Assembly (NCBI RefSeq): GCF_900156655.1
Contig: NZ_FTOG01000011.1
Coordinates: 1-64,000, forward strand
Reading direction: 5' to 3'
DNA from: Rhodobacter aestuarii
Lineage (GTDB): Bacteria > Pseudomonadota > Alphaproteobacteria > Rhodobacterales > Rhodobacteraceae
DNA length: 64,000 bases
The position numbers and the translations under genes were made by a program. The notes beneath the pieces are model-generated. The model saw only the letters and a list, made by a program, of their open reading frames with translations, made no database searches and had not been told where the DNA came from. Within the stretch, counting starts at the first letter, position 1. Each line of letters starts with the position of its first letter. This document shows positions 24,258 through 36,586 of this stretch, piece after piece.

Positions 24258-27200
24258 TCAAAACTTCCGCTCTGCCGCGATCTTGCGAAACACGAATTCC
24301 GGCAGGATGGTCTCCCATTCTTCGCGCTTAATATAGGTCCTATATTGCTCTTCGTTGTCCGACTTGCGCCAGCGCACCACCGCGCCGACCTTGCCAGAAA
24401 CCAGCGAGGTGCCCGCGGGCGGGGCCCAATTTCCAGCCATGCGGCCAAGCACGCGTTCCTTCGCGTCCAAAATCAACCATTTCCCCTCGCGGTGGGTCAG
24501 TTTCAGCGGATCATCCACCTCGGCTCCCGCAATCGCGGCCAAGGTCGGACTCGTCCCGGGCAGCCGCCCAGCATAGGAAAGATCGACCGAGCCCATATCG
24601 GGAAGCTGATACTGGTCGGGCTCGGGCAGATCGCGGCGCGCTGGCACCTCGATCTTGCGCAGCATCTCGCACGCGCTGTCGGCCTCGACGAATGCATGCG
24701 CGCCCTGCGTCACCACCGCCAGACTGCGCCGCGCGCGGGTCATGGCGACGTAGAAAAGCCTGCGCGGGGCCTCGCCGTCCTCGCCCTTGGACAGGTGCTG
24801 CCAGCCGCCGTTCAGGATCACCACATGGTCAAACTCAAGCCCCTTCGCGCGATGCGCGGTCAAGAGCAAAAGCCCCCGTTGCGCGCTGCGAATATCTTGC
24901 GCCCATTCGGCCAGCCATTCGATGGCATCAGGCACCGGGATCATCTTGTTACCCAACTCCCGCGCCAGATCGGCGATGCCCTCGGCGATCAAATCGACCC
25001 AGCGGCCGGGGCGCTCCTTGTTCAAGACATCGAGCATGTCCTGGATGCTCAGCATCATCGCCGGGCGTTGCCGCAACCCTGCCACAAGGCGCTGCATCTC
25101 GCGCAGCCGCCAGATGCTGGGCAGTTTCTCGTTCGCCATCTCGACGGGCAGGCCCAGCTTCTCGGCATAGGCGCGCACCGGGCCAAGCCGGCGCCAATCG
25201 CGCGAGATGATCGCGCAGCGCGCCCAACTGAAACCCGGATCAAGCCGCGCGATCCGCACCAGCTCGTCCACCGCCGCCACGGCCTGCGCCGTGTCGTCGC
25301 CCGCCACATCGAGAAACTGCACCCGTCCCTGAGCGACCGGGTCGTACCCCGCCATCACGCCGCCGCCCGGATCAAGGCTGCGCATCTTGTCCACTGTGAT
25401 CGGATGGCCCGCCTTCATCCGGCCGCGCGCGGTAGCAATGACCTGATTGGCGGCATCGACGATATGCCGGGTCGAGCGGTAATTCTCGGTCAGGAATTTG
25501 GGCTTGGCGCGGTAGTCCTCCTCGAATTGTCGGATGAAGGAAATCGAGGCCCCGGTGAAGGCGTAGATGTTCTGGTCGTCGTCGCCCACCGCGAACAGGC
25601 TCAGACGCTGATCGGGGTCGTCAAGCGAGCGCCCGGCCACGGCGGCAATCAGCGCATATTCGCCGGGGCCTATGTCCTGATATTCATCGACCAAAATCCA
25701 GCGATAACCTTGAATGAGCGCCTCGCGCTGCGCCTCGGCCTCGGACCGGCTCAGCCCCTCGCCGTTGATCTGGCGCACGGCCTCGTAAAGCACCGCGTCG
25801 AAATCGCGGGTCTCGGCGGCCGTGCCGGCAAAACTCGCCCCCACCAGCCGCATCGCCAGCGCGTGACAGGTTGAAACGGTGACGCGGGCGGCATCCTCGC
25901 CCACCAGATGGCGCAGACGGGCGCGGATTTCGGCGGCGGCATGGCGGTTATAACTCAGCACCAGAATGCCACGCGGATCTTCGCGCCGCACCCGCAGAAG
26001 ATAGGCGATGCGATGCACCAGCACCCGCGTTTTGCCCGAGCCGGGACCGGCCAGCACCAGCACGTTGGTCGCTTCGCGGTCGTCGGCGACGATCTCTTGC
26101 TGCACCGGATTGCCAAGGTCTTCCACAATCTGCTTCCACGCCTTGCCGGTGGTCTGGCGCTTCAACTCGACACTCCGCCCGGGCATCCAGCGTTGCAAGA
26201 ACCGGTCCTGCTCGAGGGCGAAATACTCCTCCGACAGCCGCACCGCCTCGTCGATCTGCGCCAGCCCCTTTTCGGCATAAGCCGCCATCACATGGGTTTG
26301 CAGCGTCTGTTCGCGGTAATGTTCTTCAAGCGGTAGGAAGTCCTTCTTTGTGAAGCCCGCCCGCCCGGGGTTGAGATAGATTGTCATCGCCGAGCGGAAA
26401 ACGGTCAGCCCCTTGCCCAGCGTCAGCACCTGCTGCTCGTGCAGCCACAAAAGGGCGCGCTCCATCAGCTTTGTCATTTCCTTGACGCCAGAGTCTTTCA
26501 ACAAGGCATCCCCGTTCAGCGCCGCAAGCATCAACCCGATCGTCGTATCGACCTGAATATCCTTGCCGCGCGTGCCGGGGGGCACCTTGGAAATAAAAAA
26601 CTCAAGCAGCTTTTCTGCCGCCATCCAGCGCAGCGCAGCGGTCTGTTCCACCACGCGCCACGAGCGTTGCAACGTCACCTCCAGCGTCTTGGCGGAAAGC
26701 TTGCGCAGCCGGATATTGCCCATGCCGCCGTCGCTGTCGCGCCCGTCCCGCGCGATGCTGCGCAAGAGCCGGTCGATGGCGTGCGGGCTGGCATCTTCAT
26801 GGCCATCGCCGCGCAGGATCTGGCTTGCCGCCGCCAGATCAAGGGGGGCACCATCGCCCACCTCGGCTTCGGGCGCCATCTCTCGCATCCGCGCGATCAG
26901 CGCCTTTTCCAGCCGCATCGCGCGAGCCAGACGGGGAACAGAGGCGTTTTCAAACCCCACATGCACCGAAACGGTGATCGCAATGTCATTGCGCGCGATG
27001 CCAAGGGTTTCCAGATCAGCCATCGCCTTGGCCAGCGCGCGGTGCGTCAACCCACTGACCCCGGTCAATTCGTCGGTGGTTATGCCCTGATCGGGGGGCG
27101 TGTTCATCACATGGCGCACGATCGACAAAAGCTGGCGGCGCCGGGCCTCGGTAATCTCGGCGCCCTTCAGCCGCGCTTCGGCCTCACTCAGCGTGCGCAC

Positions 27201-29408
27201 CAGAAGCGAGGAGGGATAGACCTGCACCCGGTTTTCCTCGCGCGCCAGAAGGGCGGCTTCTTCCAGCCAGGAGACGGCGGTTTTCACCCTTGTGTCGTCG
27301 GTGGCGCTGTCGCGGGTGAAATCGTGGTCCTTTTCTTCGCGCACGATCTCGCCCGCCGTCGCCACCACCGTGCCGCTGTTGCGGGAATGCTCGTCGATCC
27401 GGCGCAGGGCCTTGAGGATCGCGCCGATCTCGTGTTGCGCAAGGCGCGAACGGGCGGTGAGGGTGAACTGCCGCTCGACATCGTCGGAATGATAAAGCAG
27501 CACGCAATTCGCGGGCGCCCGGTCACGCCCGGCCCGCCCCGCCTCTTGCAGGTAGTTTTCAAGCGAGCCGGGAATATCGGCATGAACCACCAACCGGATA
27601 TCGGGCTTATCGATCCCCATCCCGAAAGCATTGGTGGCGGCGATCACCCGCAGATCGCCGATGCGAAAGCGTTCCTGTACCGTCTGTTTGTCGTCGGGCG
27701 TCAGGCCGGCGTGGAAATGCTCGGCCGCAAGCCCCTGCAGTTTCAGGAACGCCGCCACCCGCTCGGTCTCGGCGCGCGTCGCGCAATAGACCACGGCGCC
27801 GGAGGTCTCGCCCTTGGGCAGATGCTCGGTGATCACGCTCAGAATGTCGCCCAGCTTCGCGCCCTTGCTGGTCGGGCATACGGCGAAAGTCAGGTTAGTG
27901 CGCGTCGCCCCGCCGTCGAACAGCGCCAGATCGACGCCCAGACGGTCGCGGAAATGCGCGGTAATGTCACGCACCACCTCGGGCTTTGCCGTCGCGGTCA
28001 GGCACAGCACCGGCGCGGGCGGGGCGTCGCCGGTGAACTCGCGGATGAAGCGGCCGATGTAGCGATAATCGGGGCGGAAATCATGGCCCCATTTCGACAC
28101 GCAATGCGCCTCGTCCAGCACCCATAGCCCGACCTCGCGTTGCCTCAGCACCGAGCGGACCGAGACCGAGCGCAATTGTTCGGGCGAAATCAGCAAGATC
28201 GCCGCCTGGCCCAGCCGCACTCGGTCAAGCGCATCCTGCCGTTCGGGCATCGAGAGCATGCCGTTGACGGTGACCGCGGCGGAAATTCCCGCCCGCTCCA
28301 TCCCCTGCACCTGATCGGCCATCAGCGCCACAAGGGGCGAGATCACCACGGTGAGCGCCCCGGTCTTGTCGTAAAGGCTGAGCGCGGGCACCTGATAGCA
28401 GACCGATTTGCCGGTGCCGGTGGGCAGGATGCCCAGCACATGCGCATGGCCCATGGTTTCGGCCACGATGGCCTCTTGCAAGGGCCGCCCCGCGCTGTAG
28501 GCGGGCTCGGGGCGAAAGCCCGGAAAGCCGAACCATTTCTTCAGCGCTCCCACCGGGTTGTTGCGCTCGGCGCACCAGAGGCAAGTGGGATCGCCGCAGG
28601 CCGTGTCGCGCAACTCGCGCACGATAAGCGCCGCTTGCGGAAAGGCGGCACGCACCCAGGGCGGCATGACGGAATCTCCGCCAGCAACGGAAATCCACGC
28701 CAGCGCATAGGCCATCGGCCAGCCCGTTTGCGGGTCCGAAAGCGTGTCGAGCAGCGGCCCGATCCGCGCGCCGCAGGCCTTGGCCTCAAGAAGCGAACGG
28801 ATCGCCGTCAGCGCGACCGCCCGGTCGGGGATGGGGGCCTTGCGAACCTCGGTAAAAACGGCGTCAAACCCTTCGGAGCGATCGGTCCGCGTGGTCAGAT
28901 AATGATAGGCGATCAGGGTTTCGGGCGCGGCTGCATCGAGGTCTTTCAGCGCAGTGATCTGGTTTGCCAGCACCTCGAACACCAGCCGCGCATCGCGTTC
29001 CGGGTCGTTCACATGCCCCGCCTGCAAGCGCCCGTCGTGATAGTGCTTCACCAGATGATGATATGGGTTGCGCGGAAAGGCCAAGGGGTTGAGCCAAAGC
29101 GTGTCGATCGGCGCGGCCATCTTTTCAATCAACCGGGGCCGCGCCGCCAGAAGATGCTCGATATCGTGGCGCAGGATATTGTGGCCGAGGATGTGCTGCG
29201 TTTTCCCGAGCGCCTTTTCCAGCGCATCAAGTCCGCGGCCGATCTCTCCTTTCGGCGCAACGACGGCGGGCCCGTCGCCAAACCGCACCGCCGCCATGTC
29301 GAAAATCCGGGCCGTTTTCGGATCGACCTCGAGATCCACCGAAAGACACCGCTCCAGAAGAGGTGTCTTGTCCTCCCCCCGCCGCCGTATAAAATTCAGT
29401 AATGCCAT
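24258..29408 (-). CDS. Triple fusion: DnaQ-like exonuclease, RecQ helicase and UvrD helicase
   Basis: A 1716-residue protein; residue numbers below are within one of the true count. Residues 20-150 resemble a DEDD 3'-5' exonuclease (VDLEVD at 25-30, LGHNILRHD at 75-83, H133 and D140). Residues 270-280 hold three cysteines (CGDPTCLWC), possibly metal-binding. Residues 310-640 are a RecQ SF2 helicase: PTGTGKS near 330, DEAHC at 433-437, QEAGRAGRD near 622-630. After a winged-helix-like middle, residues 1110-1580 are a UvrD SF1 helicase: AGPGSGKTRVLVHR near 1121-1134, VDEYQDIGP near 1241-1249, GDDDQNIYAFTG and LFYVAMTRARRSL. ATG 29408 is chosen over TTG 29411. It is divergent from a methyltransferase gene. 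A DNA repair or defence role is inferred. Confidence 0.88.
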   Translation of the reverse strand: MALLNFIRRRGEDKTPLLERCLSVDLEVDPKTARIFDMAAVRFGDGPAVVAPKGEIGRGLDALEKALGKTQHILGHNILRHDIEHLLAARPRLIEKMAAPIDTLWLNPLAFPRNPYHHLVKHYHDGRLQAGHVNDPERDARLVFEVLANQITALKDLDAAAPETLIAYHYLTTRTDRSEGFDAVFTEVRKAPIPDRAVALTAIRSLLEAKACGARIGPLLDTLSDPQTGWPMAYALAWISVAGGDSVMPPWVRAAFPQAALIVRELRDTACGDPTCLWCAERNNPVGALKKWFGFPGFRPEPAYSAGRPLQEAIVAETMGHAHVLGILPTGTGKSVCYQVPALSLYDKTGALTVVISPLVALMADQVQGMERAGISAAVTVNGMLSMPERQDALDRVRLGQAAILLISPEQLRSVSVRSVLRQREVGLWVLDEAHCVSKWGHDFRPDYRYIGRFIREFTGDAPPAPVLCLTATAKPEVVRDITAHFRDRLGVDLALFDGGATRTNLTFAVCPTSKGAKLGDILSVITEHLPKGETSGAVVYCATRAETERVAAFLKLQGLAAEHFHAGLTPDDKQTVQERFRIGDLRVIAATNAFGMGIDKPDIRLVVHADIPGSLENYLQEAGRAGRDRAPANCVLLYHSDDVERQFTLTARSRLAQHEIGAILKALRRIDEHSRNSGTVVATAGEIVREEKDHDFTRDSATDDTRVKTAVSWLEEAALLAREENRVQVYPSSLLVRTLSEAEARLKGAEITEARRRQLLSIVRHVMNTPPDQGITTDELTGVSGLTHRALAKAMADLETLGIARNDIAITVSVHVGFENASVPRLARAMRLEKALIARMREMAPEAEVGDGAPLDLAAASQILRGDGHEDASPHAIDRLLRSIARDGRDSDGGMGNIRLRKLSAKTLEVTLQRSWRVVEQTAALRWMAAEKLLEFFISKVPPGTRGKDIQVDTTIGLMLAALNGDALLKDSGVKEMTKLMERALLWLHEQQVLTLGKGLTVFRSAMTIYLNPGRAGFTKKDFLPLEEHYREQTLQTHVMAAYAEKGLAQIDEAVRLSEEYFALEQDRFLQRWMPGRSVELKRQTTGKAWKQIVEDLGNPVQQEIVADDREATNVLVLAGPGSGKTRVLVHRIAYLLRVRREDPRGILVLSYNRHAAAEIRARLRHLVGEDAARVTVSTCHALAMRLVGASFAGTAAETRDFDAVLYEAVRQINGEGLSRSEAEAQREALIQGYRWILVDEYQDIGPGEYALIAAVAGRSLDDPDQRLSLFAVGDDDQNIYAFTGASISFIRQFEEDYRAKPKFLTENYRSTRHIVDAANQVIATARGRMKAGHPITVDKMRSLDPGGGVMAGYDPVAQGRVQFLDVAGDDTAQAVAAVDELVRIARLDPGFSWARCAIISRDWRRLGPVRAYAEKLGLPVEMANEKLPSIWRLREMQRLVAGLRQRPAMMLSIQDMLDVLNKERPGRWVDLIAEGIADLARELGNKMIPVPDAIEWLAEWAQDIRSAQRGLLLLTAHRAKGLEFDHVVILNGGWQHLSKGEDGEAPRRLFYVAMTRARRSLAVVTQGAHAFVEADSACEMLRKIEVPARRDLPEPDQYQLPDMGSVDLSYAGRLPGTSPTLAAIAGAEVDDPLKLTHREGKWLILDAKERVLGRMAGNWAPPAGTSLVSGKVGAVVRWRKSDNEEQYRTYIKREEWETILPEFVFRKIAAERKF

Positions 29409-29641
29409 CAAGCCCGTGCAGCAGAAAAGTGTTGCGCGAGACTAAAGCGCCGAAACTGGCCCCGCAATACGCGCCGACAGGGTTTTGCCGCTGCCCGGTG
29501 CCGCAGGGCGAAGCTTGGGTCTCGACGGATGGCGCCAAACCTAGAACAACTTGGGGGATTTCATCATCCGCGCGGCCCGATGCCCCCGTCCTTGGCGGGT
29601 GGCTCGGGAACAGCTTGGGCGCAGGTCTTGCGGAGTTTCGG

Positions 29642-30205
29642 ATGTCCAAAGCCGATTATTACGAAACCCATGCGGCGGAATTTGTCGCGGCGACGGTGGC
29701 GGCGGACATGTCGGCACTGCGCCACCGCTTCCTTTCGGCCCTTCCGCCTTCCCAAACCGGCTCTGTCCGCATTCTCGACGCTGGGTCAGGCTCCGGGCGC
29801 GATGCCCGCGCCTTCCGCGAAGCCGGTTTTGCCGTCTCGGCCTTTGATGCCTCTGCCGCGATGGTCACCGCGACGCGGGCATATGCGGGGGTGCCGACCC
29901 GGCGGATGCGGTTCGAGGATTTCGACTGGGAGCATCGTTTCGAGGGCATCTGGGCCTGCGCATCGCTTCTGCATGTGGCGCGGCAAGACCTCCTGCCGGC
30001 AATCGCCCGTTTGGCTCGGCACCTCGTGCCCGGGGGCGTGCTCTATCTCTCGTTCAAGAGCGGCACGCAAACGCGGATCAAGGACGGGCGGCGCTTCACC
30101 GACATCACAAGCGACGATCTTGGGCCACCCGATATCTGGGAAACGCGCGATTGCCGCCCGGACAGCGGGGCAGAGATTTGGGTGAATGCCTTGGTGAAAT
30201 GCTGA
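29642..30205 (+). CDS. Class I SAM-dependent methyltransferase, intact, substrate unknown
   Basis: A 187-residue Rossmann-fold methyltransferase. It begins MSKADYYETHAAEFVAATV and has the SAM-binding loop ILDAGSGSGRDARAFREAG near residue 45. A second acidic segment, FEDFDWEHRFEGIWACASLLHV near residue 95, and PGGVLYLSFKSG near 135 follow. GGAG precedes the ATG at 29642. The stop codon overlaps the start of the downstream HIT-like fragment (TGATG), so it was once translationally coupled to the broken nuclease-helicase gene. The substrate could be small-molecule or nucleic acid; no DNA-methylase catalytic motif is apparent. Confidence 0.8.
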   Translation: MSKADYYETHAAEFVAATVAADMSALRHRFLSALPPSQTGSVRILDAGSGSGRDARAFREAGFAVSAFDASAAMVTATRAYAGVPTRRMRFEDFDWEHRFEGIWACASLLHVARQDLLPAIARLARHLVPGGVLYLSFKSGTQTRIKDGRRFTDITSDDLGPPDIWETRDCRPDSGAEIWVNALVKC

Positions 30206-31755
30206 TGAGCCAGGGCTGCCCCAAGGAAGATAACGACCCGGGTGCCGAAGGGTGCCCCATCTGCGACGCCCCGATGCGTCGTGTCGTCGCCTGCGATGCA
30301 CAAAGCATGGTCATCCAGAATGGTGCCGGGCTTCTGCTCGCACCGCACGGGCATGTCGCGCGCTGGCGGACCCTTTGCCCGGTCTTCCGCACGACCGCGC
30401 CCTGATTTCGGGCAGCGACGACGCCCTGCATGCCCACCTTCGGCCACTGATCGATCAATCGACGGCGGTGGACCTGTCGGTCTCCTTCCTGATGACCTCC
30501 GGGGTGCGTCTGGTGTTGCCGCATCTGCAGGACCTGCTTTCGCGCGACGGACGGTTGCGGGTTCTGACCGGGGATTATCTCGATGTGACCGAACCCGCGG
30601 CGCTTCGGCTGATGACCGATCTCACCGGCGCGCGGCATCTGTTCGTGTTTCGGGCCTCGCGGATGCCATTTCATCCGAAAGCCTAGCTTTTCACCTTCAA
30701 GGACGGATCCGGCGCGCTGATCGTGGGCTCGTCGAACCTGTCAAAATCCGCCCTGACCGACGGGGTCGAGTGGAACCTGCGCCAGTTCGATCGCCACGAC
30801 ACCGCGCCCCTCGCCGCCTGTGCCGGTTTCGAGGCGCTTCTGGCCCGCCCCGAAGTGACGGATCTCACGCCCGATTGGATCGACACCTACGAGGCGCGCC
30901 GAATCGTCCCCCGTCCAGACCAAAGCGGCGCTCCAGAGGAACCGACGGAGCCGCCGCCCGAGCCGCACGAGGTTCAACGCGAAGCCCTCGCCGCGCTGCG
31001 GGCCACGCGGGACAAGGGCTACGGTGCCGGGCTGGTGGTTCTGGCCACCGGACTTGGCAAGACTTACCTTGCCGCCTTCGACAGCCTTGACGCCCGACGG
31101 GTGCTGTTTGTGGCCCATCGCGAAGAAATCCTGACGCAGGCGATGGCGGCGTTTCGGGCCGTGCGGCCTCAGGCGTGAATGGGGCGCTACATCGGTGACG
31201 ACCGCGAGCCCGAGGCCGAGATCCTGTTTGCCTCGGTGCAGACGCTTGCCCGCAGCGCGCATCTGTCGCGGTTCGATCCCCAGGCTTTTGACGACATCGT
31301 CATCGATGAATTTCACCACGCCGCAGCGACGGCGGCGATCTCTTGGGGCTGTGCGAGGAAAACCTCGTTTATGAATGCGATCTCTGGTCCGGGATCGACC
31401 GCAAACTTTTGGCGCCGTTTCACTATTTCGGGGTGCCAGATCCAGTCGAATATGCGCAAATCCCCTGGCGCAGCGGCCGCTTCGACGATACGGCGCTCGC
31501 CACCCGCGCCCGGGCGGAAAACGCACTCGACCAACTGGCTCGACGCGGCGACAGCAAGACGATCGGCTTTTGCGTCTCGCGGCGGCACGCTGATTTCATG
31601 GCGTGCTTCGCCACCGAGCGGGGGCTACGCGCCGTAGCGGTGCATTCGGGCGAAAGCTCGGCACCTCGCACCAGCGCGCTTGACGCATTGGCAGACGGCA
31701 AGCTCGACATTGTTTTCGCCGTCGACATGTTCAACGAAGGGGTGGACGTGCGCCT
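30205..31755 (+). pseudogene. Decayed HIT / phospholipase-D (HKD) / SF2 helicase gene(s)
   Basis: Fragments line up with a HIT-like N-terminus, an HKD nuclease and a restriction-type SF2 helicase. 30205-30372 reads CPICDAPM and LLLAPHGHVARW, like the start of a HIT protein. After a deletion and frame change, HKD sequence (MPFHPKA, then GSSNLSKSAL) runs through a TAG at 30684-30686 where TGG is expected. The helicase Walker A is LATGLGKTYLA, followed by a TGA at 31176-31178 and the DEFHH motif. A deletion near 31330 removes the expected TATP motif and shifts frame. The rest (ENLVYECDLW to FAVDMFNEGVDV) ends abruptly near 31755, without the expected C-terminal half. Confidence 0.8.
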
Positions 31756-31889
31756 TTCGCGGGAACAGCCTAGCGGCCACTCCCCGCCATCGCTCAATGA
31801 AAATCCCGGCTCGGAAATAGCCGCTTGGCCTGTTCGCGCGGGTGGCGCGCGCGCGGGGCGGGGCGTGGGGGGCGCGGGGCGTCGTCGGC
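31756..31889. other. G-rich junction between the pseudogene and dnaE2
   Basis: This short stretch separates the truncated helicase remnant from the dnaE2 stop codon. It contains GGGG, GGGG, GGGGGG and GGGG runs separated by one to three bases at 31855-31879, a strong G-quadruplex pattern on the plus strand. No gene is seen. It marks the deletion end of the pseudogene. Confidence 0.6.
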
Positions 31890-34800
31890 TTAGGGCAGCG
31901 TGCCGCCGATCCGTTCGGGCATCGGGTGGCCGAGGTCTGAGAGCCTATGCGAGAGGTCCTCTATCTGCTCTGCAATCAAATGCACCACGATCCCCTCGCG
32001 CTCCAATCGCCCGCTCACGCGCAAAAGCCGCCCGCCCATCACCGCGCGGCGGTAGCGTTCGTAAAGCTTGGGCCAGACCACGACATTGGCGACCCCGGTT
32101 TCATCTTCCAGCGTGAGGAAAATCACCCCCGAAGCGGTGCCGGGGCGTTGGCGGGTGATGACAAGGCCGCACACACTGGTGCGCCCCAGCGGTGCTTTGG
32201 GCAATTGGTCGTGGCAGGTGAGACCAGGCAGGCCGGGGCGCAAAAGCTCCATCGGGTGGGCGCGCAAAGTCAGGCGCAGCGCAATGTAATCCTCCACCAC
32301 CTCTTCGCCCAAATGCATTGGCGGTAAGGTGAGCGCAGGTTCCACCAGCCCCTCGCCATCCAGCGGGTTGGCAAAAAGCGGCAAGGGTTTCGGGGCGCGG
32401 ATTGCGCGCACCGCCCACAGCGCATCGCGCCGGGTGAGCCCCATACCGGCAAAAGCATCGGCCTCGGCCAAGCGTTCGAGCGTGGCGGGCGCAAGCCCGG
32501 CGCGCAGCCAGAGGCTTTCAATATCGGGGTAGCCATTGCCGCGCGCGGCCACGAGCCAGCCCGCATCCTCGGCCCGCAAGCCCTTGATCTGCCGAAAGCC
32601 AAGCCGCAAGGCGAGCCGCCCATCAGCGCGGCGTTCAAGGCTGTTGTCCCATGTCGAATGGTTTACGCAAACCGGGCGCACCTCTACCCCATGTTCGCGG
32701 ACATCGCGCACGATTTGCGCAGGCGCGTAAAAGCCCATCGGCTGGGCATTGAGCAGCGCGCAGGCAAACACTTCGGGGTGGTGGCATTTCAGCCAAGAGG
32801 AGACATAAGTCAGCATCGCAAAGGCCGCCGCATGGCTTTCGGGAAAGCCGTAATCGGCAAAGCCTTCGATCTGGGCGAAACAGGCCTCGGCAATCTCTTG
32901 CGCATAGCCATTGGCGCGCATCCCGCCAATAAAGCGTTCGCGGTGTTGTTCAATCGTGCCCATGCGCCGGAAGGAGGCGAGCGAGCGGCGCAACTGATCC
33001 GCCTCTTCCGCCGAATAGCCCGCGCCGACCACGGCGATCTGCATCGCTTGTTCTTGAAAGAGCGGCACGCCGAGCGTTTTGGCGGTGACGGCAGCGAGCG
33101 CAGGGCCGAAAGGCTCGGGCGCCTCCAGCCCCTGACGGCGGCGGATATAGGGTTTGACCATGCCTCCCTGGATCGGACCGGGGCGGACAATCGCCACCTC
33201 GATCACGAGGTCATAGAAGGTTTCAGGCTTCATCCGGGGCAAAAAGTTCATCTGCGCGCGGCTTTCGACCTGAAACACCCCCACCGCATCGGCACGGGTG
33301 AGCATTGCGTAAGTGGCGCGGTCTTCTTGTGGCACGGTGGCAAGGCTGAGCCGCTCGCCTTTGTGGGCCTCCAGCAGATCGAAACTTTTGCGCAGGCAGG
33401 TCAGCATCCCAAGGCTGAGGATATCGACCTTGAGGATGCCAAGCGCGTCGATATCGTCTTTGTCCCATTCGATGCAGCTCCGCCCCGCCATCGCGGCGTT
33501 TTCAATTGGGCAAAGGTCATCCAGCCGTCCCCGCGTGATGATGAAGCCGCCAACATGTTGGCTCAGATGGCGCGGAAAGCCGATAATCTCGCCAATGAGC
33601 CGGATGGTCAGCGCCAAGCGGCGGTCTTCGGGGTTCAGCCCCACCTCGCGCAGCCGCGCCGGCTCTGCCCCTTGGTTCGACATGCCCCAAATCTGGCCCG
33701 CAAGGGCTGCCGTGACATCGGCAGAGAGTCCCATCACCTTGCCCACCTCGCGGATTGCGGCACGGGAGCGGAAATGGATCACCGTGGCACACAGCCCGGC
33801 GCGATCGCGGCCATAGCGGTCGTAAATCCATTGGATGATTTCCTCGCGCCGCTCATGTTCAAAATCCACATCAATATCGGGCGGCTCGCCGCGATGGCGC
33901 GAGATGAAACGCTCAAACACCATACCAATCATTTCGGGCGCGACATCGGTGATGCCCAGCAGGTAACACAGGATCGAATTGGCCGCCGAACCGCGCCCTT
34001 GGCACAAAATTCCGCGTCGTCGCGCCTCGGCCACGATGTCGTGCACGGTGAGGAAATAGGGCGCATAGCCCAGTTCCGCGACCAGCCCCAATTCCTTGGC
34101 CATCAGCTTATAAACGCGTTCCGAGGCCCCCCCGGGGTAGCGCCGCGCCAGCCCCTCACGCGCAAGCCGGTCCAGCCGAATTTGGGCGGGTTCGCCATCG
34201 CTGGCCTCATCTGGGTATTCATAGCTGAGTTCCGACAGATCAAAGCTGCACCGCGCGGCGATTTCCAACGTGCGCCGGATCGCGGCGGGGTGGTGGCGGA
34301 AAAGCCGCGCCATCTCCTCCGCGCTTTTCAACCGCCGCTCCCCATTGGGCAGCGCGCGGGTGCCAATGGTATCAATCGTCAGCCCCTCGCGCAGGCAGGT
34401 CAGCACATCGGCCAAAGGGCGGCGATGGGCTCGGTGCATCAGCACATCGCCCACCGCCACCATCGGTGTATTGGCGCGCAAAGCAAGATCGGCACAGGCA
34501 CGAAACCACGCCTGATCGGAGCCGTCATAATGCGGGGCGGCCCCCAGAAAGACATGGCTGGGAAAGGCGCGTTGGAGTGTTTGAAGGGGCGCGCGGATCG
34601 CCCCAGTCTGTAATGTTTCAGGCGCGCTTGGGGGCGGCAAAGCGATCAAGATCATGCCCGCACAGCCCGCCGCCAGATCACTTAGATCAAGATGGCACTC
34701 CCCCTTGCTCGCGCGGCGCTTGCCCAAAGTGAGCAACCGCGAGAGCCGCTCATAGGCGGCGCGGTCCGTGGGCAAAGCAAGCAAATCGAGCGGGCAATCA

Positions 34801-35117
34801 CGCAGCACCAGCCGCGCCCCCACAATCAACCGAGGCAAGGCTGGCGTGTCGGGCCGGGCTAAATCTTGCGGCCTGCCCACCGCTTGGCGCGAGGACGGGT
34901 CCACCTGCGCGCTGGAACGAATGCGCAGCCCCGCCGCCTCTTCGCGCAGGGTTTTGAGTGCTGAGAAGGCCCGCACCACACCCGCCAAACTGTTACGGTC
35001 GGTGATGGCGAGTGCGGTCAGACCCAATTCCGCCGCGCGGGCCACCAACTCCTCGGGGTGCGAGGCCCCGGTGAGGAAGGTGAAATTGGAGGTCACGCAA
35101 AGCTCTGCATAGCTCAT
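31890..35117 (-). CDS. dnaE2: Error-prone DNA polymerase DnaE2 (ImuC)
   Basis: Second copy-type C-family polymerase that performs damage-induced mutagenic synthesis with ImuA and ImuB. The 1075 residues start MSYAELCVTSNFTFLTGASH (PHP domain), which is preferred over a longer frame. Polymerase core motifs PPDIDVDFEHERREE near residue 400 and GILKVDILSLGML near 560 contain the catalytic Asp residues. The C-terminus holds an OB-fold (GVIFLTLEDETGVANVVVWP). It overlaps imuB by four bases and is last in the imuA-imuB-dnaE2 operon. Confidence 0.96.
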   Translation of the reverse strand: MSYAELCVTSNFTFLTGASHPEELVARAAELGLTALAITDRNSLAGVVRAFSALKTLREEAAGLRIRSSAQVDPSSRQAVGRPQDLARPDTPALPRLIVGARLVLRDCPLDLLALPTDRAAYERLSRLLTLGKRRASKGECHLDLSDLAAGCAGMILIALPPPSAPETLQTGAIRAPLQTLQRAFPSHVFLGAAPHYDGSDQAWFRACADLALRANTPMVAVGDVLMHRAHRRPLADVLTCLREGLTIDTIGTRALPNGERRLKSAEEMARLFRHHPAAIRRTLEIAARCSFDLSELSYEYPDEASDGEPAQIRLDRLAREGLARRYPGGASERVYKLMAKELGLVAELGYAPYFLTVHDIVAEARRRGILCQGRGSAANSILCYLLGITDVAPEMIGMVFERFISRHRGEPPDIDVDFEHERREEIIQWIYDRYGRDRAGLCATVIHFRSRAAIREVGKVMGLSADVTAALAGQIWGMSNQGAEPARLREVGLNPEDRRLALTIRLIGEIIGFPRHLSQHVGGFIITRGRLDDLCPIENAAMAGRSCIEWDKDDIDALGILKVDILSLGMLTCLRKSFDLLEAHKGERLSLATVPQEDRATYAMLTRADAVGVFQVESRAQMNFLPRMKPETFYDLVIEVAIVRPGPIQGGMVKPYIRRRQGLEAPEPFGPALAAVTAKTLGVPLFQEQAMQIAVVGAGYSAEEADQLRRSLASFRRMGTIEQHRERFIGGMRANGYAQEIAEACFAQIEGFADYGFPESHAAAFAMLTYVSSWLKCHHPEVFACALLNAQPMGFYAPAQIVRDVREHGVEVRPVCVNHSTWDNSLERRADGRLALRLGFRQIKGLRAEDAGWLVAARGNGYPDIESLWLRAGLAPATLERLAEADAFAGMGLTRRDALWAVRAIRAPKPLPLFANPLDGEGLVEPALTLPPMHLGEEVVEDYIALRLTLRAHPMELLRPGLPGLTCHDQLPKAPLGRTSVCGLVITRQRPGTASGVIFLTLEDETGVANVVVWPKLYERYRRAVMGGRLLRVSGRLEREGIVVHLIAEQIEDLSHRLSDLGHPMPERIGGTLP

Positions 35118-36586
35118 GCAAATTCTCCCTGCACAAACCAGCCCGGATCTTGCGGGGTGTAAAACATCCACAACCGCCGCCCCTCGCGCGTTTCCACCCG
35201 CCAGTAATCGCGCAGGCCCCGGCGCCAATTCTCATCCTCGATCCACCATTCCGGGGCGATGCGTTCGGGCCCGGTGGCGCGCCCCAAGCTGAGCCGCATG
35301 CCCCGCCAGCGGAAACTGCGCGGCGGCTCGGTGCCCTGTGCGGCAATGGGCTCGGGCGGGAACAAACGCAGCGGGCGTGGGCGCGGCGTAGTGAAACCGC
35401 TCTGCGGGGCGCTGAAGGCCGCAGGCGCCAGCAAAAAGGCGCGCTCGGGGATGTGACTTTCCGCAGGTAAAAACCGCTGAACATTTTCCAGCCCGATCCG
35501 CGTGCCGATCCGGGTGATCAGATCGGCCAGTTGTTCGGGCGGCGCATGGCCGGGCGCGGCATTTTGCAAGGCATTGCTTTGCGGCGGGGCGAGCTTTTCC
35601 ACCTGCACCGCCTCCAGCCGCATCTGATCAATGCCAAAGCCAGCATCCACATCTTCCAGCCCACGGGCAAAAAGTGGCAAGATGCGTGCAGGCTCCCGCA
35701 TCGGTGCAGCCAAGCGCAATTCCACCTGTTGGCTCGCCTGATCGACCCGGCGTAGGGTCAGGCACAGCCGCCGCGCCCCCATTTCTTGCGTGGCGAGCTT
35801 TTGGCACAGCGGGATGAGCAGCCGTTCCAGCGCCGCTTGCACATCGGCCTGCAAGCCGATCGGCTCGGGCAAGGTCATCCGGGTGGCAAATTGCGGCGGC
35901 TCGGCCTCGGGCGTCACGGGTTCGGGCGCATGGCCAAGGCATTGATCCAGCCGGGTCAGCAGGTCTTGCCCGAACCGCCGCGCAAGCGGCGCGCGCGGGC
36001 TGGCCGCCAAATCACCGATTTTGCGCAGCCCCAACCGCTGCAACGCAACCACCGTATCGGCAGGCAGGCGCAGCGCCGCAACGGGCAAAGAGAGCAGGGT
36101 TTCTTCGCTACCGCCAAAATGCGCCACCGCCCAAGCCGCCCCGCGTGACGCCGCAAGGCCGAGCTGCGCTGTCACCCCCGCGCGGGCAAGCCGGGCTTGC
36201 ATATCGGCCAGCATCGCCGCCTCGCCCCCAAACAGATGCGCGGCTCCGGTGATGTCCAGCACCAGTCCATCCGCACCTTCAAGGCCGACCCAAGGGCAAT
36301 ATCGCTCCGCCCAACGGCGCAACAGCCGCAGGAAACGGGCATCTTGGTCGGGCCTTGCGGGCTGGCTGATCAGGCTTGGGCAAAAGCTGCGCGCATCGGC
36401 CATGCGCATGCCGCGGTGCAACCCGTCCCGTTCGGCGCTGGTATTGAGGCAATAAATCGTTTCGCTAGCGCCGATGCGTTGGGACAGAGCAACGGGGCCT
36501 TCGACCGGGCGCGCGCGTAAAACCCGGTCACTCGCCAGCCGGGGAAACCAGATCGAGACGATGCGCCTGTGCGTTCCAGCAAACAT
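35114..36586 (-). CDS. imuB: ImuB, Y-family polymerase-like mutagenesis protein
   Basis: A 490-residue member of the Y-family fold that acts as the hub linking the beta clamp, ImuA and DnaE2. The N-terminus RRIVSIWFPRLASDRVLR lacks the first catalytic acidic motif of true Y polymerases, while VLDITGAAHLFGGE is the typical ImuB segment near residue 108. The C-terminal ImuB domain ends DPGWFVQGEFA. It starts inside imuA (59-base overlap) and overlaps dnaE2 by four bases. Confidence 0.93.
   Translation of the reverse strand: MFAGTHRRIVSIWFPRLASDRVLRARPVEGPVALSQRIGASETIYCLNTSAERDGLHRGMRMADARSFCPSLISQPARPDQDARFLRLLRRWAERYCPWVGLEGADGLVLDITGAAHLFGGEAAMLADMQARLARAGVTAQLGLAASRGAAWAVAHFGGSEETLLSLPVAALRLPADTVVALQRLGLRKIGDLAASPRAPLARRFGQDLLTRLDQCLGHAPEPVTPEAEPPQFATRMTLPEPIGLQADVQAALERLLIPLCQKLATQEMGARRLCLTLRRVDQASQQVELRLAAPMREPARILPLFARGLEDVDAGFGIDQMRLEAVQVEKLAPPQSNALQNAAPGHAPPEQLADLITRIGTRIGLENVQRFLPAESHIPERAFLLAPAAFSAPQSGFTTPRPRPLRLFPPEPIAAQGTEPPRSFRWRGMRLSLGRATGPERIAPEWWIEDENWRRGLRDYWRVETREGRRLWMFYTPQDPGWFVQGEFA

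What the first reader, a model, noticed from the sequence alone, without database searches (positions are those of the whole stretch)
24258..29408. Single protein joining a DnaQ-like exonuclease, RecQ helicase and UvrD helicase
The protein has all catalytic helicase motifs of two different superfamilies plus intact-looking DEDD exonuclease residues near the N-terminus and a small cysteine cluster. A helicase-helicase-nuclease polypeptide could unwind and digest a DNA structure by itself. Its neighbours are a methyltransferase and a broken nuclease-helicase gene, a setting typical of defence or DNA-processing islands. I know of no experimental description of this architecture.
Basis: partly seen in the sequence, partly recalled or inferred. 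Interest (0 to 1): 0.75.

Follow-up and report, generated by a model that had tools for sequence, protein, structure and literature searches.

The report
Mobile exonuclease-RecQ-UvrD fusion protein
A Rhodobacter-like bacterium carries one very large protein that joins a DNA-trimming domain to two different DNA-unwinding motors; the gene is scattered over unrelated bacteria, plasmids and a prophage and often sits beside a restriction enzyme, so it is probably an undescribed weapon against foreign DNA rather than an ordinary repair gene.

Summary
One qualification: the catalytic His of DEDDh enzymes is Asn135 here, as in 92 of 97 aligned sequences; the four acidic residues are kept, so exonuclease activity is likely but unproven. 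I call it ERU.

ERU is accessory: found in 6 of 18 genomes of its genus, 63 of 394 of its family, 16 of 398 of a phylum sample (some hits are fragments), on plasmids, inside a prophage, and in eight phyla. It has no constant partner, but it recurs next to a SauUSI-like type IV restriction enzyme: both in 12 of 394 genomes, adjacent in 8 of those 12, in three orientations.

Best explanation: a mobile one-chain nuclease-helicase acting on foreign DNA. Rival: a replication or recombination helper of mobile elements. Nothing has been tested against phage; seven literature searches found no description.

The parts
24258..29411 (-).
   Evidence: full-length relatives
28872..29360 (-). DEDD exonuclease domain, residues 18-180 (D26, E28, D83, D140; Asn135 in place of the catalytic His)
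28572..28775 (-). Four-cysteine, probably zinc-binding stretch, residues 213-280 (C213, C272-x4-C277-x2-C280)
   Evidence: 96-97 of 97 aligned sequences; metal binding is inferred
27447..28499 (-). RecQ-family SF2 helicase core, residues 305-655
   Evidence: K335 and E434 in 97 of 97
26127..27446 (-). Linker region, residues 656-1095, partly winged-helix-like; no RecQ zinc, RQC or HRDC domain found by Pfam
   Evidence: (iron-dependent-repressor match E 0.0016)
24612..26126 (-). UvrD/PcrA-type SF1 helicase core, residues 1096-1600
   Evidence: K1127, D1242, E1243 in 97 of 97
24261..24611 (-). C-terminal mostly beta region, residues 1601-1717
29642..30205 (+). Small class I SAM methyltransferase, divergent from ERU; cassette partner
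30205..31750 (+). Broken SauUSI-like type IV restriction helicase-nuclease: pieces matching residues 1-59, 103-427 and 448-597 of the 1062-aa R. viridis protein; the DUF3427 end is missing
   Evidence: no DUF3427 match in this genome
31792..31794 (.). Point where homology to three same-genus genomes (G004, G014, G009) stops, about 100 bases past DnaE2: DnaE2-side edge of the inserted block

Best explanation
ERU is a horizontally moving, single-polypeptide nuclease-helicase that removes foreign DNA. Proposed working: it loads on a 3' single-stranded tail, a DNA end or a branched intermediate; the RecQ and UvrD motors (both families move 3' to 5'; recalled) unwind the duplex; the N-terminal DEDD domain trims the freed 3' strand. 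It can act alone, and in a subset of genomes it works beside a SauUSI-like type IV restriction enzyme with a small methyltransferase, which would supply the ends. Shown here: domain make-up, conserved catalytic residues of both motors and metal-binding residues of the exonuclease, purifying selection, patchy and mobile distribution, recurrent linkage to the restriction enzyme. Inferred: DNA as substrate, polarity, order of events, defence as the benefit.
For: Patchy, not core: 6 of 18 genus, 63 of 394 family (393 genera), 11 of 385 class, 16 of 398 phylum genomes, fragments included. Eight phyla among the best 80 loci of a capped scan; 24 plasmid records with 80% or more of it; inside a prophage (L041: integrase, O-like initiator, ERU, ParB/methyltransferase, terminase, portal). 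Linkage: DUF3427 helicase in 28 of the same 394 genomes; both in 12 (one of these ERU hits, G030, is a fragment), 4.5 expected, Fisher p 0.0004; adjacent in 8 of 12 (G385, G319, G370, G315, G409 divergent; G192, G213 co-directional; G364 convergent), about 2e-16 under random independent placement, which inheritance or joint transfer of the cassette would make too small. On a tree of 75 ERUs the label 'restriction enzyme next door' needs 8 changes (shuffled mean 12.1, so it is also partly inherited). The intact partner matches SauUSI (7clg, E 1.2e-88) with PLD, ResIII and DUF3427 domains. PADLOC near ERU: mREase_IV 4 and REase_I 3 of 114 neighbours (possibly the same proteins) against 0 of 120 control genes; Pfam McrBC 2, HNH_2 2 of 114. 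Single loci: TIR effector and MTES_1575 island (L097), type I RM (L138), CRISPR I-D about 4 kb away (L136). dN/dS 0.12-0.13 over the gene and 0.05-0.21 by domain against the two closest relatives.
Against: No phage or plasmid challenge exists. The DEDD catalytic His is Asn; in SaDinG Ala at the equivalent His nearly abolished activity (PMC12345164, passages), so the exonuclease may be weak or only bind ends. 51 of 63 ERU genomes have no DUF3427 match and 16 of 28 DUF3427 genomes lack ERU, so neither needs the other. In prophages and on some plasmids ERU lies next to replication or partition genes, as a replication helper would. Neighbour samples are small and hand-picked for long contigs (20 of 63 genomes), and control genes also gave PADLOC hits (19 models, among them mad3 in 3 genes). 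No PADLOC model among the 25 best shown covers the whole protein.
Confidence: 0.5

Rival explanations
1. ERU serves the mobile elements themselves: a recombination, fork-restart or end-processing enzyme for phages, plasmids and integrative elements, kept on chromosomes as leftover or domesticated cargo.
For: In L041 ERU lies between an O-like replication initiator with a resolvase-like gene and the ParB-packaging genes; an Aliarcobacter plasmid has it beside parAB, with rep genes nearby; RepB partition genes are among 114 neighbours twice and integrases twice.
Against: No phage record of 50,697 holds 80% of it in one place. In L119 unrelated cargo (a two-component pair and a potassium transporter, read by eye) lies between ERU and the ParB-like gene, as in a cargo slot. 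Repeated linkage to a restriction enzyme is not expected. At least 7 of the 20 fetched family copies lie on contigs over 3 Mb, thus chromosomes (hand-picked).
Confidence: 0.27
2. ERU is a chromosomal repair helicase-nuclease, a bacterial analogue of Werner protein, that helps with crosslinks or stalled forks.
For: Exonuclease plus RecQ is the make-up of WRN (recalled); exonuclease-helicase proteins such as SaDinG and MrfAB act in mitomycin resistance (PMC12345164, passages); in the window ERU lies 2.5 kb from the DnaE2/ImuB mutagenic repair genes.
Against: Present in a minority of every group searched, whereas DnaE2 is in 18 of 18 genus genomes. In the 5 other genus genomes with ERU, DnaE2 is on another contig; these are draft contigs, some short (G003's is 7.8 kb), so this is support and not proof. 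Homology to three genus genomes stops about 100 bases past DnaE2.
Confidence: 0.13
3. The exonuclease domain is a dead or binding-only module, and ERU acts as a double translocase that strips proteins from DNA or blocks replication of invaders without cutting.
For: Asn in place of the general-base His in 92 of 97; the exonuclease has a higher dN/dS than the motors against the two closest relatives (0.18-0.21 against 0.05-0.10), though not clearly against three more distant ones (0.05-0.14 against 0.05-0.10), where synonymous sites are near saturation.
Against: The metal-binding acids and the GHN motif are kept in 95-96 of 97, out to members 24-30% identical; a related 2492-aa protein keeps the canonical His spacing, so the fold comes from a family that looks active.
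Confidence: 0.1

Closest known systems
Werner protein (WRN) and the RecQ family
   Same: DEDD-type exonuclease in front of a RecQ core on one chain; RecQ core over the family cut-off
   Different: Carries a whole UvrD helicase as well; no RecQ zinc, RQC or HRDC domain found; Asn at the catalytic position, while WRN is a DEDDy enzyme (recalled)
Exonuclease-containing DinG (SaDinG) and Hna
   Same: One protein joining 3'-5' exonuclease and helicase-type motor; SaDinG's family is the best PDB profile match of the exonuclease part; Hna is anti-phage (PMC13381803, abstract and passages)
   Different: DinG/XPD-type motor in both; Hna is 845 aa with a C-terminal PD-(D/E)XK nuclease; ERU has RecQ and UvrD motors
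RecBCD / AddAB / AdnAB
   Same: Two motors and a nuclease as one end-processing machine; the UvrD-type fold also matches AdnB and RecB
   Different: Those are multi-subunit with RecB-family nucleases (recalled); ERU is one chain, accessory, with a RecQ motor
Gabija (GajAB)
   Same: UvrD-type helicase with a nuclease; GajB models match the UvrD part and the GajB structure is among the fold matches
   Different: Nuclease is GajA, a separate protein (recalled); 1 of 114 ERU neighbours matches GajA
SauUSI type IV restriction enzyme (the partner, not ERU)
   Same: Partner in L039: PLD, SF2 ATPase, DUF3427; E 1.2e-88 to 7clg
   Different: Extra N-terminal stretch of about 130 residues, HIT-like by eye; linked methyltransferase and ERU; broken in the window
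2492-aa cold-shock, exonuclease, RecQ, UvrD protein (L261, L262, Rhodobacter sp. CZR27 plasmid)
   Same: Same exonuclease-RecQ-UvrD order
   Different: 775 residues longer, with a cold-shock match below the Pfam cut-off; canonical His spacing in the exonuclease

Membership tests
RecQ helicase family | RecQ-type SF2 helicase core | tested here: met
   TIGR00614 301.6 bits against cut-off 219.8; fold match to 1oyw
RecQ helicase family | RecQ equivalog, or zinc-binding/RQC/HRDC C-terminal domains | tested here: not met
   TIGR01389 351 against 640 bits; no such Pfam domain at E 0.01
UvrD/Rep/PcrA helicases | SF1A core | tested here: met
   PF00580, PF13361 over cut-off; fold match to 2is1; motif names recalled
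UvrD/Rep/PcrA helicases | Equivalog of UvrD, Rep or PcrA | tested here: not met
   Best 163 bits against cut-off 965
DEDDh 3'-5' exonucleases | Four acidic residues in the ExoI, ExoII, ExoIII positions and the fold | tested here: met
   each line modest, no exonuclease structure among the 50 fold matches shown
DEDDh 3'-5' exonucleases | Catalytic His five residues before the last Asp | tested here: not met
   Asn135 in the window; Asn in 92 of 97, His in none
DEDDh 3'-5' exonucleases | Measured 3'-5' exonuclease activity | not testable with these tools
   needs purified protein
Hna | PD-(D/E)XK nuclease C-terminal to a DinG-like motor | tested here: not met
   no such domain among the Pfam matches; Hna described
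Gabija | GajA nuclease partner | tested here: not met
   GajA in 1 of 114 neighbours of 20 loci
SauUSI type IV restriction enzymes (partner gene) | PLD nuclease, SF2 ATPase and DUF3427-type recognition domain | tested here: met
   L039, L047, L097 proteins (PLD below the Pfam cut-off in the first two); 7clg E 1.2e-88 for L039
SauUSI type IV restriction enzymes (partner gene) | Cleavage of methylated DNA | not testable with these tools
   needs purified protein
Core DNA repair genes | Present in nearly all members of the group | tested here: not met
   63 of 394 family genomes; DnaE2 for comparison 18 of 18 in the genus

The most novel reading that the evidence does not exclude
ERU is a one-chain counterpart of RecBCD made from parts of three unrelated enzyme families, working as the second, destructive stage of a defence cassette: a SauUSI-like type IV restriction enzyme cuts modified foreign DNA, ERU loads on the ends and shreds it with an Asn-type DEDD exonuclease, and a small methyltransferase tunes or protects; on plasmids and prophages ERU alone guards its carrier against competitors.
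Probability: 0.22. Interest if true: 0.8.

Novelty: new variant of a known kind. Interest (0 to 1): 0.55.

Why it matters
Nuclease-helicase proteins are a major class of bacterial immunity, but none described in the papers searched puts two motors of different superfamilies and an exonuclease on one chain. The family is widespread, and where annotated on plasmids it is filed mostly as 'RecQ family ATP-dependent DNA helicase'. If it defends, it adds a new architecture and a new partner for type IV restriction; if it helps mobile elements, it is a one-chain model for coupling RecQ and UvrD motors. The conserved Asn at the general-base position makes a simple biochemical question testable: can a DEDD enzyme without its His still cut?

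Tried and rejected
Considered and rejected. (1) Two fused pseudogenes or a frame artefact: rejected, 51 of 68 listed family matches lie in open frames of 1600 codons or more. (2) A repair locus because DnaE2/ImuB are next door: see rival 2. (3) Topoisomerase partner, as RecQ-TopoIII: the topoisomerase beside L103 and L116 looks like a core topA locus by eye, and L137 has one with a transposase between. (4) HNH_2 nuclease as general partner: directly upstream and co-directional in L052, L058, L075, L187, L193, but co-occurrence is weak (19 of 63 ERU genomes against 10 of 63 others, p 0.09) and 2 of the 19 are adjacent, the same loci as L187 and L193. (5) Mirror tree of ERU and the restriction enzyme: Mantel r 0.78, p 0.0002 in 10 pairs (L097, L079 and L240 not in), but three near-identical groups drive it and L180/L186 break the pattern; not used as evidence of co-evolution. 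(6) The SecA-side boundary of the island was not resolved. (8) Promoter and repeat scans gave nothing of use; no tRNA in the window.

Limits. Gene calls around loci are from my own codon-usage script, trained on ERU itself and checked by eye against one annotated plasmid; it is therefore no evidence for ERU as a gene. Tallies show only the best 25 of 64, 128 and 151 families; the control list (19 models) is complete. In the tree 'no restriction enzyme' can mean that the contig ended; among the 99 loci, 29 have under 1.5 kb on one side. L240 was left out of that tree because its ERU is broken.
Full report
What is there. The window lies in contig C22 of a 3.84-Mb draft genome of a Rhodobacter-like alphaproteobacterium (nearest full-length relatives are from Rhodobacter viridis and Sinirhodobacter hankyongi). 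I call the protein ERU (exonuclease-RecQ-UvrD).

Domains. Pfam and NCBIfam find the RecQ core at 305-655 and UvrD at about 1101-1567, both over curated family cut-offs; the equivalog cut-offs for RecQ, UvrD, Rep and PcrA are not reached. AlphaFold models of the two halves (mean pLDDT 83.7 and 84.7) match RecQ cores and UvrD/PcrA in the PDB. The whole chain is over the length limit, so the arrangement of the two motors is unknown. Residues 655-1095 show a weak match to an iron-dependent repressor (E 0.0016), in line with winged helices.

The exonuclease. Pfam does not see it in the window protein. A profile of 36 members matches the exonuclease of DinG best (E 0.0078); hhalign against 31 RNase_T proteins gives E 1.3e-4, probability 53%, over 123 columns with the ExoI, ExoII and DTL elements in register, against E 0.04-0.64 for five other segments of the family; the model shows the expected strand-helix order, but the 50 fold matches shown are all RecQ-type helicases. 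A related giant protein (2492 aa) gives 33-35 bits at 361-484 and has the canonical His-x4-Asp spacing (the alignment leaves a gap there, so this rests on spacing). In ERU the acids D26, E28, D83 and D140 are present in 95, 95, 96 and 95 of 97 aligned sequences, but the His is Asn in 92, Ser in 3, Lys in 1, gap in 1. In SaDinG, Ala at this His nearly abolished activity (PMC12345164, passages). I rate exonuclease activity as probable, not shown.

Selection. Against the two closest relatives dN/dS is 0.12 and 0.13 over the gene; exonuclease 0.18 and 0.21, RecQ 0.05 and 0.08, UvrD 0.09 and 0.10. Against three more distant ones the exonuclease has 0.12, 0.05 and 0.14, with synonymous sites near saturation. 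The domains tested are under constraint.

Distribution. With a profile of residues 18-300 (E <= 1e-10): 6 of 18 genus genomes, 63 of 394 family genomes (393 genera), 11 of 385 class genomes, 16 of 398 phylum genomes; several of these hits are fragments. The best 80 loci of a capped genome scan come from eight phyla (51 of 80 Alphaproteobacteria); those outside Alphaproteobacteria are at about 50-55% identity. On a tree of 76 the phylum labels need 9 changes, 7 being the least and 11.9 the shuffled mean: some phyla are scattered, so transfer is likely, but bins may hold stray contigs. 24 of 72,556 plasmid records hold 80% or more of it; 0 of 50,697 phage records do. In L041 (a Marinibacterium bin, 84% identical) the gene lies inside a prophage between an O-like replication initiator (and one unknown gene) and the ParB/methyltransferase-terminase-portal block; L119 has similar upstream genes by eye.

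Not a repair locus. In the window ERU is 2.5 kb from DnaE2 and ImuB. DnaE2 is in 18 of 18 genus genomes, ERU in 6, and in the 5 others with ERU the two lie on different draft contigs, some short. Homology to G004 (DnaE2 96% identical), G014 and G009 stops at 31792-31794. G004 has only two scraps of ERU.

The cassette. The genes beside ERU in the window are a small methyltransferase and a helicase-nuclease broken into pieces matching residues 1-59, 103-427 and 448-597 of the 1062-aa protein of R. viridis. That protein has ResIII, Helicase_C and DUF3427 domains over the cut-offs and a PLD match under it, and matches PDB 7clg (E 1.2e-88), a code that occurs in the SauUSI paper PMC7913695 (one occurrence counted, passage not shown). 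SauUSI is a type IV enzyme of PLD, SF2 ATPase and recognition domains that needs methylated sites, translocates and shreds DNA (PMC7913695, abstract and passages); DUF3427 is tied to SauUSI's recognition domain in PMC7159879 (passage). ERU, divergent methyltransferase and this helicase form the same cassette in R. viridis (L039), S. hankyongi (L078, methyltransferase partial), G409, G385, G319, G370 and G315 (ERU beside it broken; a second ERU frame of 1703 codons lies elsewhere in that genome). Other arrangements: co-directional without methyltransferase in G192, G213, L047 and L097, a fragment in L079, convergent in G364.

Is it chance? DUF3427 was sought in the same 394 genomes: 28 have it; 12 have both, 4.5 expected, Fisher p 0.0004; 8 of the 12 are adjacent, about 2e-16 under random independent placement of each. 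Shared descent or joint transfer makes that figure too small, but on a tree of 75 ERUs the label needs 8 changes, so the pair has formed or broken many times. The methyltransferase-restriction pair also exists in three of four fetched genomes without ERU (G114, G219, G065, not G291), and 51 of 63 ERU genomes have no DUF3427 match, the window's genome among them: a frequent but optional partner.

Other neighbours. For 20 of the 63 family genomes, chosen for long contigs, up to three genes each side (114 in all) against 120 genes from control stretches of the same contigs: PADLOC (E <= 1e-15) mREase_IV 4 and 0, REase_I 3 and 0, PbeA 4 and 1, GajA 1 and 0, DruE 1 and 0; control hits include mad3 in 3, a CARF/RtcR regulator, LmuB and helicase models. 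Pfam near ERU: DUF3427 4, McrBC 2, HNH_2 2, phage integrase 2, RepB 2; none of these is in the control's first 25 of 151. On annotated plasmids HipA, BrnT, RES and VapC genes lie within 10 kb in three records; these are common on plasmids and I had no control there.

Mechanism. Best reading: a mobile nuclease-helicase directed at foreign DNA ends or branches, acting alone or beside a restriction enzyme. The inference rests on family knowledge (3' to 5' motors; recalled) and on analogues: Hna, a 3'-5' single-strand exonuclease held back by ATP and set off by phage SSB (PMC13381803, abstract and passages); Gabija, which acts on DNA ends without RecBCD (PMC12407980, abstract). How ERU would spare the host is unknown; control by ATP, SSB or RecBCD/AddAB occupancy are candidates.

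Literature. Seven full-text searches of the held library returned no paper that describes an exonuclease-RecQ-UvrD protein, as far as listings, abstracts and the passages read show; most subscription papers are not held.

Noticed in passing
L261:6755-14230 (-) and L262:5214-12689 (-): A 2492-aa protein with a weak cold-shock match, DEDDh-type exonuclease, RecQ and UvrD, 2427 of 2492 positions identical in two genera and 92% identical (in three pieces) on a Rhodobacter sp. CZR27 plasmid: a second, larger fusion of the same kind.
   Followed up: partly
L041:954-20694: Prophage gene order with ERU between replication and packaging genes; in L119 two-component and potassium-transporter-like genes (by eye) lie between ERU and the ParB-like gene.
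   Followed up: partly
L058:2192-3112, L187:6228-7148, L193:12750-13670, L075:6522-7442, L052:8912-9808: An HNH_2 nuclease of about 300 aa directly upstream of ERU on the same strand in five loci, operon-like.
   Followed up: partly
L097:1732-11845: Defence-like island in a Woeseiaceae bin: DUF4011/MTES_1575 helicase-nuclease, TIR effector, SauUSI-like gene, then ERU.
   Followed up: no
window 31890-36586: DnaE2 and ImuB of the mutagenic repair operon; DnaE2 is in all 18 genus genomes.
   Followed up: partly
L140:8929-15916: A 1599-aa ERU relative beside parA/parB on an Aliarcobacter plasmid, 24% identical, same helicase order.
   Followed up: no
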